Part shown: in pieces, positions 1,890 through 5,235 of the stretch
How the letters are laid out: each line of letters opens with the position of its first letter
How positions within the stretch are numbered: the first letter of the stretch is position 1
From: Chloroflexota bacterium
Lineage (GTDB): Bacteria > Chloroflexota > Dehalococcoidia > SM23-28-2 > RBG-16-64-32
DNA length: 6,467 bases
NCBI GenBank assembly: GCA_016190405.1
Contig: JACPQO010000043.1
Location: 1 to 6,467 of the forward strand
Reading direction: 5' to 3'
Made by a program: the position numbers and the translations under genes
The notes under the pieces: model-generated
The model's input: the letters and a program-made list of their open reading frames with translations, nothing else
Databases searched by the model: none
Told to the model about the DNA's origin: nothing

Positions 1890-2303
1890 CTACACCTCCA
1901 CCCACAGCTGGTGGCGCAGCCAGCAGTGGTCACACAGCGAGACCGGCTCCCGGACCGGCATCCCCTCGCGGCGCACGCTGCGCAGCCGGGAATGGACGTG
2001 AGACCGGCAGAACAGCGCCTGACAGTGGGAGCACTGGCCCCAGCGCGGGCGGCGGCAATCGGGCAGGCCGCACCTGGTCTGGGAGTTCCTCAGGCTGACG
2101 ATGTCCAAGTAGGCCTTGTGGACCCCCAAGTCGGCCACCTTCCTCTGGCATAGCTGCCGGTGGCATACCTGCTGCCCCTCCTCCAGCATATCGCCGTGCT
2201 GGGGGCAGAATGGCCGTCCGCAGTACTGGCAGCTCCCCACTGAGGCCTCGGGGCAGCGCTGGAACAGACGGCCGGAATAGCAGGCCTGTTGGGAGCCGGT
2301 CAT
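1890..2303 (-). CDS. Small Cys/His-rich protein with two B-box-like zinc modules
   Basis: No named family is certain. Numbering from the ATG at 2309, the 139-aa chain holds two copies of one pattern: C19-x7-C27-x2-C30-x4-C35-x2-H38 and C85-x7-C93-x2-C96-x4-C101-x2-H104, exactly 66 residues apart. Further Cys pairs follow or precede them (C10, C49, C54, C80, C126, C129 and H133). The spacing resembles B-box zinc fingers, so it probably binds several zinc ions and acts through protein or nucleic-acid contacts. No signal peptide, membrane segment or enzyme motif is seen. Of two ATGs, 2303 stands 7 bases from AAGGGA, while 2309 is only one base from it; I use 2303 (137 aa). It follows the 85-aa gene after a short gap holding a GC hairpin, so both are likely on one transcript. 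Confidence 0.7.
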   Translation of the reverse strand: MTGSQQACYSGRLFQRCPEASVGSCQYCGRPFCPQHGDMLEEGQQVCHRQLCQRKVADLGVHKAYLDIVSLRNSQTRCGLPDCRRPRWGQCSHCQALFCRSHVHSRLRSVRREGMPVREPVSLCDHCWLRHQLWVEV

Positions 2304-2319
2304 GGGCATGTCCCTTGTC

Positions 2320-4723: not shown

Positions 4724-4758
4724 AAAAAGAGGGCGGCCCCAATGCATGAACCGCCCTC
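4724..4758 (-). terminator. Intrinsic terminator of the zinc-ribbon gene
   Basis: On the minus strand GAGGGCGG (4758-4751), a 14-base loop and CCGCCCTC (4736-4729) form a perfect 8-bp stem followed directly by TTTTT (4728-4724). It begins 29 bases after the zinc-ribbon stop and closes that transcription unit before the next operon. Confidence 0.85.
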
Positions 4759-4787
4759 CAAGGGGCTGGCTTGTCTTCTAGGCTGGT

Positions 4788-4994
4788 CTACAGCCGCAGC
4801 TTGCCGTGGGACGGCTGCCGGCGACGCTGGCGGTGCTCCCCATTGCCCTCGTTCTCCAGCTCCAGGGCTGCCGTGGCCCCGAACTCGTAGACGTAGCCAC
4901 AGGACAGGCACGTGCTGTAGGCGCCGTACCAGTCTTCCTCAAACAGCATAGAGCCGCGACATCGTGGACAACTGCGTGGTGGAGCCGTCTGCAT
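4788..4994 (-). CDS. Small zinc-ribbon protein under a ydaO-type riboswitch
   Basis: This 68-aa protein has one zinc ribbon: C9-P-R-C12, then C29-L-S-C32, with a 16-residue loop holding LFEEDWYGAYS and followed by GYVYEF. The C-terminal third (about residues 44-68) is charged and probably disordered: ELENEGNGEHRQRRRQ, then a basic tail. Such proteins usually bind nucleic acid or a protein partner, but no specific function is known to me. The ATG at 4994 is chosen because GGGAGG lies 9 bases upstream; an in-frame TTG at 5015 would include the Shine-Dalgarno in the gene. It is the only gene between the riboswitch terminator (5024-5056) and its own terminator (4724-4758), so it seems to be the sole target of the switch. 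That link to c-di-AMP is unusual, since known targets are mostly cell-wall, potassium and osmolyte genes. Confidence 0.75.
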   Translation of the reverse strand: MQTAPPRSCPRCRGSMLFEEDWYGAYSTCLSCGYVYEFGATAALELENEGNGEHRQRRRQPSHGKLRL

Positions 4995-5023
4995 CGATCC
5001 CCGCCTCCCTCTCAAGAGACAAC

Positions 5024-5056
5024 AAAAAAGCCTGCCACCAGCGGCCCTGGTGAGGC
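5024..5056 (-). terminator. Riboswitch expression-platform terminator
   Basis: On the minus strand GCCTCACCAG (5056-5047), a 5-base loop and CTGGTGGCAGGC (5041-5030) pair as CACCAG/CTGGTG plus GCCT/AGGC around a 2-base bulge. TTTTTT (5029-5024) follows at once. It starts at the very end of the aptamer and 30 bases before the zinc-ribbon start codon, the layout of transcription attenuation. Confidence 0.8.
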
Positions 5057-5181
5057 CCTTTCGTCCGCCGCCGAGGTTAGTTGACGGGTTCGGGTCGAAA
5101 GGTTAACCCTACCCCGACCCAGTCGGGGATTCACCCCAGTCTATCCATCCCCCCGGTCCCGATACGATCGGGATTTGGCGT
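5057..5181 (-). ncRNA. ydaO-yuaA type riboswitch aptamer (c-di-AMP)
   Basis: Read on the minus strand, the parts of the ydaO aptamer appear in order. ACGCC (5181-5177) is the 5' closing strand, then AAATCCCGAT-CGT-ATCGGGA forms the first hairpin (5158-5172). GGGGTGAAT (5137-5129) precedes a hairpin CCCCGA-CTGGG-TCGGGG (5112-5128). GTAGGG, TAACC and CCTTTCGACCC follow, then the hallmark ACCCGTCAACTAACCTCG (5089-5072), GGCGG, and CGAAAGG (5063-5057). CCTTTCG (5102-5096) pairs perfectly with the last element. From memory, the crystallised Thermoanaerobacter aptamer has the same order, with GGGA/TCCC where this has GGGT/ACCC, a compensatory change. In this family c-di-AMP binding turns expression off. 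The identification rests on recalled consensus; no covariance model could be run. Confidence 0.85.
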
Positions 5182-5206
5182 GTCACCATTTGTGACTGCA
5201 ATAACT

Positions 5207-5235
5207 ATGTTAGGTGCCATTCCCTACCCTGTCAA
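5207..5235 (-). promoter_or_regulatory. Promoter of the riboswitch/zinc-ribbon unit
   Basis: On the minus strand a perfect TTGACA (5235-5230), a 17-bp spacer and TAACAT (5212-5207; 4 of 6) predict a start near 5200. That is about 20 bases before the aptamer and gives a leader of about 205 bases to the zinc-ribbon ATG. A small inverted repeat, GTCAC/GTGAC (5182-5196), lies between start and aptamer. Confidence 0.6.

What the first reader, a model, noticed from the sequence alone, without database searches (positions are those of the whole stretch)
4724..5235. Complete c-di-AMP (ydaO-type) riboswitch unit controlling only a 68-aa zinc-ribbon protein
Promoter, aptamer, intrinsic terminator, Shine-Dalgarno, one small gene and a final terminator follow each other with nothing else inside. 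Known ydaO targets are mainly cell-wall hydrolases, K+ and osmolyte transporters. A lone zinc-ribbon protein as target suggests an uncharacterised c-di-AMP response factor, perhaps a regulator or a small partner protein.
Basis: partly seen in the sequence, partly recalled or inferred. Interest (0 to 1): 0.85.

Follow-up and report, generated by a model that had tools for sequence, protein, structure and literature searches.

The report
c-di-AMP switch on small zinc-ribbon gene
A well-known kind of RNA switch that senses the bacterial signal c-di-AMP sits in front of a tiny, strongly conserved metal-binding protein of unknown job, and the pairing is kept in many related, mostly uncultured bacteria, which points to an unstudied branch of c-di-AMP signalling.

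Summary
Window 5051-5190 (minus) is a canonical c-di-AMP (ydaO/yuaA, RF00379) aptamer, 83.2 bits against a cut-off of 38, between a sigma-70-like promoter and an intrinsic terminator, followed by one 68-aa zinc-ribbon gene with its own terminator. The link is not local: of 80 genome loci encoding the protein, 60 carry the aptamer directly upstream on the same strand. Rfam's own model confirmed 32 of these 60, all that I gave it, and found none in 17 of the 20 negatives. The trait needs five changes on a protein tree. Relatives' genomes encode diadenylate cyclase in 45 of 50. The protein has a TFIIB/RPB9-like zinc ribbon and a nearly invariant basic C-terminus and passes no Pfam cut-off. Related genomes also place c-di-AMP riboswitches before other small zinc-ribbon proteins, so this looks like a lineage theme. 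Many promoters carry a CRP-like palindrome. What the protein does is unknown; a transcription- or ribosome-associated factor is my inference. Ligand binding and switching are untested.

The parts
5207..5235 (-). sigma-70-like promoter, TTGACA-17-TAACAT
   Evidence: 10 of 12; TTGACA is also visible upstream of the aptamer in many relatives
5191..5206 (-). CRP-like site AGTTA-N6-TCACA just downstream of the -10; weak upstream half in the window
   Evidence: site found by my parser in 53 of 81 loci; for coordinates
5051..5190 (-). c-di-AMP riboswitch aptamer (RF00379)
   Evidence: 83.2 bits, cut-off 38
5056..5104 (-). aptamer loop CCUUUCG (within 5104-5093) that can pair with tail CGAAAGG (within 5065-5056), next to the terminator arm
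   Evidence: pairing varies together across loci; for coordinates
5024..5058 (-). intrinsic terminator of the expression platform
   Evidence: U-run in 34 of 55 parsed leaders
4999..5011 (-). Shine-Dalgarno-like GAGGGAGGCGGGG
   Evidence: sequence
4788..4994 (-). 68-aa zinc-ribbon protein gene: two CxxC knuckles plus basic tail
4791..4832 (-). codons of the C-terminal tail RQRRRQPSHGKLRL
   Evidence: exact last 13 residues in 74 of 81 loci
4724..4759 (-). final intrinsic terminator

Best explanation
This is a one-gene transcription unit of a Chloroflexota (Dehalococcoidia-like) bacterium in which a canonical c-di-AMP riboswitch sets the level of a 68-aa zinc-ribbon protein. Shown by computation: aptamer, terminator, gene, and conservation of the pairing. 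Inferred: when c-di-AMP is high, the ligand-bound aptamer lets the terminator form and the gene is off; when c-di-AMP is low, RNA polymerase reads through and the protein is made. Where leaders have no U-run, control is probably at translation. The protein is most likely a small nucleic-acid- or machine-binding factor: the ribbon docks on RNA polymerase or ribosome and the nearly invariant positively charged tail contacts nucleic acid or a fixed partner, so that transcription or translation is adjusted when c-di-AMP falls. A CRP-like site over the start region may add a second layer of control.
For: Aptamer. Coupling: 60 of 80 loci; Rfam's own model 16 of 17, the miss being L023, and 16 of 16 among the 17 lowest-scoring positives; the 17th, L053, matches by coordinates at 62.1 bits. 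Five changes on the tree against a shuffled mean of 16.2. ORF clusters around the gene differ between clades while the aptamer stays. Aptamer loop and tail vary together: 45 distinct pairs mean -11.2 kcal/mol, partners swapped -9.5 (sd 0.31, best of 500 -10.5), tails scrambled -6.8. Terminator stems with changed but still complementary letters in near relatives (by eye). Cyclase domain in 45 of 50 relatives. Strong purifying selection: 26 synonymous against 1 replacement codon difference to L001. Ribbon modelled at block-mean pLDDT 80-89 over residues 11-40; best fold matches are RNA-polymerase ribbons, Thermus ZifS and, by VIA-align, NADH pyrophosphatase and topoisomerase I, all weak.
Confidence: 0.72

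Rival explanations
1. The protein is a ribosome-associated factor (hibernation or translation tuning), ribbon and basic tail binding rRNA as small zinc-ribbon r-proteins do; c-di-AMP limits it when high.
For: Weak sequence match to eS31, E 0.24; weak structural matches to ribosome or initiation-complex chains; net charge of the last 15 residues +5 to +6 on an otherwise acidic protein.
Against: The same weak score range as the RNA-polymerase ribbons; no functional link seen. I did not annotate the neighbours one by one.
Confidence: 0.25
2. The protein is a small DNA-binding regulator that binds its own CRP-like operator (autoregulation), with the riboswitch as a second brake.
For: TTGACA-N21-24-TGT-N8-TCACA occurs 22 times in 30 genomes, 19 of them at this promoter, reversed control 1 (the 30 were chosen among carriers of the gene, 11 of 30 had no match). 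The site is present in all 16 loci of the clade without riboswitch.
Against: TGTKM-N6-TCACA is the spacing of CRP-family sites (recalled); the relaxed motif gave 15 matches in 16 genomes, only 5 at this promoter, control 2; HTH_Crp_2 matches occur in 19 of 20 genomes. 28 of 81 loci had no site by my parser.
Confidence: 0.12
3. The aptamer is real but without present use: a relic kept by descent.
For: Aptamer lost in some lineages without loss of the gene.
Against: Aptamer 30-112 nt before the start codon in 60 loci, with co-varying pairing in differing surroundings.
Confidence: 0.05

Closest known systems
ydaO/yuaA c-di-AMP riboswitch, RF00379 (B. subtilis ydaO/kimA)
   Same: Full-length aptamer well over cut-off, terminator directly after it; ligand-dependent termination in B. 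subtilis is stated in passages of PMC5575661 and PMC9960051
   Different: Target is a small zinc-ribbon protein, not a K+ transporter or cell-wall gene
C. glutamicum nlpC c-di-AMP riboswitch (translation control; PMC9960051, passages)
   Same: Possible model for the related leaders without U-run
   Different: The window itself has a terminator; target unrelated
S. coelicolor rpfA leader: ydaO switch in a scheme that also involves cAMP and ppGpp (as cited in PMC9960051, passage)
   Same: Precedent for a c-di-AMP riboswitch combined with another nucleotide-dependent layer
   Different: Here only a CRP-like site is seen, over the start region; binding untested; other target
Zinc ribbons of TFIIB (PF08271) and RPB9/TFIIS type (PF02150)
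   Same: CxxC-x14-18-CxxCG in 81 of 81 loci; best sub-threshold profile matches
   Different: The window protein is below the curated cut-offs; a few relatives carry such a domain label in the database. One ribbon with a fixed basic tail
NrdR, a zinc-ribbon repressor listed among c-di-AMP-related proteins of Listeria (PMC5575661, table passage)
   Different: NrdR chains are about 150 residues; this protein has 68 and no further domain
Thermus thermophilus ZifS (TTHA0897), PDB 8yoz
   Different: Not among the sequence matches; no paper on it found
Other small Chloroflexota zinc ribbons, some ending in RRGRR
   Same: Similar ribbon, short basic end
   Different: No RF00379 in any of the 20 short loci fetched

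Membership tests
RF00379 c-di-AMP riboswitch | covariance-model score over gathering cut-off | tested here: met
   83.2 bits against 38, model 1-134 of 134
RF00379 c-di-AMP riboswitch | lies in the 5' leader of a gene with an expression platform | tested here: met
   terminator within 5058-5024 between aptamer and start codon
RF00379 c-di-AMP riboswitch | loop-tail pairing kept by joint variation | tested here: met
   45 distinct pairs against swapped and scrambled controls, 55 of 61 leaders parsed; a cruder parse of 35 leaders was not decisive; rows are related, not independent
RF00379 c-di-AMP riboswitch | binds c-di-AMP | not testable with these tools
   needs in-line probing
RF00379 c-di-AMP riboswitch | host makes c-di-AMP | tested here: inconclusive
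   window genome not held; PF02457 in 45 of 50 relatives' genomes
Zn_Ribbon_TF PF08271 / Zn_ribbon_RPB9 PF02150 | curated gathering score | tested here: not met
   19.9 against 29 and 19.5 against 25.2
zinc ribbon fold (general) | two CxxC knuckles on a small beta sheet | tested here: met
   81 of 81 with CxxC-x14-18-CxxCG; strands 15-21, 24-29, 35-38 in the model
CRP/FNR-controlled promoter | TGTGA-N6-TCACA-like palindrome and a CRP-type protein | tested here: inconclusive
   site in 53 of 81 promoters, but genome G017, whose promoter L017 has TGTGA-N6-TCACG, shows no HTH_Crp_2 match; the window site is weak; binding untested

The most novel reading that the evidence does not exclude
Dehalococcoidia have a c-di-AMP regulon centred on small zinc-ribbon proteins: two or three different ribbon families are each placed behind c-di-AMP riboswitches, and they act on RNA polymerase or ribosomes to reset gene expression when c-di-AMP falls. 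That would make c-di-AMP a controller of the transcription or translation machinery, not only of transport and cell wall.
Probability: 0.3. Interest if true: 0.8.

Novelty: new variant of a known kind. Interest (0 to 1): 0.62.

Why it matters
The riboswitch class is known, but its gene here belongs to an uncharacterised, strongly conserved protein family whose expression is tied to c-di-AMP across a deep, mostly uncultured lineage. It gives a concrete target for finding what c-di-AMP does in Chloroflexota, and Tepidiforma flava (a named strain with a complete genome, L053) offers a testable host.

Tried and rejected
Rejected: chance aptamer (score; 60 of 80 loci). Rejected: the 75-aa frame from TTG 5015 as start; the ATG at 4994 has the SD-like sequence and matches the relatives' usual start. 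Rejected: a conserved operon partner; clusters of ORFs of 100 aa or more within 3.5 kb group by clade (25 largest clusters read, some of them antisense artefacts). Rejected: that all small Chloroflexota zinc ribbons are under this riboswitch; 0 of 20 distant loci fetched (of 46 matches listed) had RF00379. Not settled: an antiterminator for the window. The family is not widespread in the phylum: of 201 sampled genomes 26 matched, but only G001 (the centre itself) and G054 near full length with high score; the other 24 have weaker, distant ribbons. No fold identity beyond a generic ribbon. Virus records were not searched (one search did not complete).

Literature limits: the two early target surveys that I recall (Nelson et al. 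2013, Block et al. 2010) are not held, so I saw nothing of them; a zinc-ribbon target could be listed there. Searches that showed me no paper on this link: 0 papers; 30 of 58 papers listed; 8 papers; 1 paper. Of PMC5575661 and PMC9960051 I saw passages only.

Full report
What is there. Read on the minus strand, window 5235-4724 holds a complete unit: a TTGACA-17-TAACAT promoter, an RF00379 c-di-AMP aptamer at 5190-5051 with 83.2 bits, a hairpin followed by T6, an SD-like stretch, a 68-aa ORF (4994-4788) and a second hairpin followed by T5. RF00379 is the only Rfam match over a gathering score in the window. The unit lies beside a divergent ABC permease gene and, past the last terminator, a same-strand ABM-domain gene.

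Is the gene real? phmmer returned 148 proteins at E<=1 (120 listed), the best 97% identical; an alignment returned 424 among the 7981 candidates scored. Between the window and L001 the gene differs by 26 synonymous and 1 replacement codon. All 81 copies have the two CxxC knuckles, and 74 of 81 end in QRRRQPSHGKLRL. One of the two peptide patterns used to fetch the 80 loci was taken from that tail. In the alignment of the window with 45 of the 120 listed proteins the tail is invariant or nearly so, but that search also needs shared short words, so sequences with another tail could be under-sampled.

Is the pairing more than local? The genome scan matched 147 stretches, 125 of them relatives, of which the best 80 were kept. 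A covariance model built from the window's aptamer and 16 others found the aptamer directly upstream on the same strand in 60 of 80 loci at E<=4e-8; L023 has a trace at 11.4 bits, and two hits at 9.4-9.5 bits (L062, L066) are not at the right place. As that model was trained on upstream aptamers, I also used Rfam's own: 16 of 17 loci, the miss being L023; 16 of 16 among the 17 lowest-scoring positives; 0 of 16 negatives (with this covers 16 of the 20 negatives by name, L023 twice). On a protein tree the trait needs 5 changes against 16.2 for shuffled labels; the tree has few columns. One clade of 16 loci and four others (L023, L052, L074, L076) lack the aptamer. In one search, 50 of 50 genomes hold one. 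A cyclase domain (PF02457) is found in 45 of 50 genomes.

How it works. In the leaders, a loop of the aptamer (CCUUUC-type) and the tail after P1 (GAAAGG-type) vary together: 45 distinct pairs average -11.2 kcal/mol; with partners swapped -9.5 (sd 0.31; best of 500 -10.5); with scrambled tails -6.8 (55 of 61 leaders parsed; rows are related). A first, cruder parse of 35 leaders was not decisive (-12.3 against -11.5, best swap -12.5). From memory the pairing resembles a pseudoknot drawn for the class; I did not check it. In the window the tail runs straight into the terminator arm. A U-run follows in 34 of 55 parsed leaders. I infer ligand-promoted termination, as reported for B. subtilis (PMC5575661 and PMC9960051, passages). 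Leaders without a U-run may act on translation, as reported for C. glutamicum nlpC (same passages).

A second control layer? Aligning promoters at TCACA gives TGTKM-N6-TCACA right after the -10 in 53 of 81 loci, with G and T of the upstream half in 51 and 49 of 53, although sites were picked by the downstream half and a TTGA[CG] at set distance. 53 is a lower bound: L011 visibly has the site but my parser missed it. It is present in all 16 loci of the clade without riboswitch, and was not found in the Tepidiforma-titled loci L050, L053, L079. With the -35 included it occurs 22 times in 30 genomes, 19 at this promoter, control 1; 11 of the 30 had no match. The relaxed palindrome gave 15 matches in 16 genomes (one place counted on both strands), 5 of them at this promoter, control 2, so other sites exist. 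HTH_Crp_2 matches occur in 19 of 20 genomes (18 over the cut-off), but the family also rings in 14 of 14 control genomes, and G017, whose copy has the site, has none. I leave the regulator open.

A wider theme. I read the first likely genes after 40 other c-di-AMP riboswitches in 13 genomes (a convenience sample from the lists, the first of which was cut). By eye, 9 of 40 precede other small proteins with two CxxC motifs (L083, L094, L098, L100, L128, L140, L088, L132, L138); 7 a KamA-family radical SAM protein (only L084 run against libraries, below the curated cut-offs); 6 a VTT-domain protein followed by a PIN-domain protein and an IspD-like one (only L099 run: VTT and PIN over cut-off, TRAM below, IspD not run); 3 an MFS-like transporter (not run); 15 I could not assign (one, L137, has a KamA-like second ORF). 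One ribbon family was searched in 32 genomes and 13 matched. By coordinates a riboswitch lies just upstream in 8 of these 13 (G001, G005, G007, G010, G011, G012 and, for more distant matches, G017 and G018); in G004 it does not; G002, G006, G009 and G016 are undecided because the list was cut.

What the protein is. Best profile matches of the window protein are TFIIB, RPB9 and Lar zinc ribbons below cut-off (members of the alignment); a few relatives carry a ribbon label in the database. The model has a ribbon at fair confidence and a loose tail. Foldseek and VIA-align give only weak matches: RNA polymerase ribbons, ZifS, NADH pyrophosphatase, topoisomerase I, NrdR, ribosome chains. A ribbon with an acidic remainder and a fixed +5 to +6 tail suits a small factor docking on a large, conserved machine; that is inference.

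Known or new. The aptamer is an ordinary member of RF00379. The target class is new to me, and the library searches showed no paper on it, with the limit that the early target surveys are not held. The family is lineage-restricted.

Noticed in passing
L083, L094, L098, L100, L128, L140, L088, L132, L138: Other small two-CxxC proteins directly behind c-di-AMP riboswitches in relatives' genomes; judged by eye, one family searched further.
   Followed up: partly
L084, L095, L097, L101, L124, L126, L139: c-di-AMP riboswitch before a KamA-family radical SAM protein (L084 below the curated cut-offs; others by eye); beta-lysine osmolyte synthesis would fit but is untested.
   Followed up: partly
L086, L096, L099, L102, L125, L127: c-di-AMP riboswitch before a VTT-domain membrane protein, then a PIN-domain protein and an IspD-like protein (L099 run; others by eye).
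   Followed up: partly
L023:4820-4933: Trace of a c-di-AMP aptamer (11.4 bits) before an intact zinc-ribbon gene; looks like a riboswitch in loss.
   Followed up: partly
L054:4518-4680 (-), L074:5270-5415 (+): Cobalamin-type riboswitches next to the zinc-ribbon gene in two relatives.
   Followed up: no
window 1893-2309 (-): 139-aa Cys-rich protein with a sub-threshold AN1-like zinc-finger match; a related ORF lies near the zinc-ribbon gene in 14 other loci.
   Followed up: no
L103, L104, L106, L110-L114, L119: Genomes of about 1.7-1.9 Mb carry two or three small zinc ribbons, many ending in RRGRR, without this riboswitch in the stretches fetched.
   Followed up: partly
G010:C9:6368 and G012:C107:4240: A second, similar promoter with the TGT-N8-TCACA element away from the zinc-ribbon gene.
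   Followed up: no
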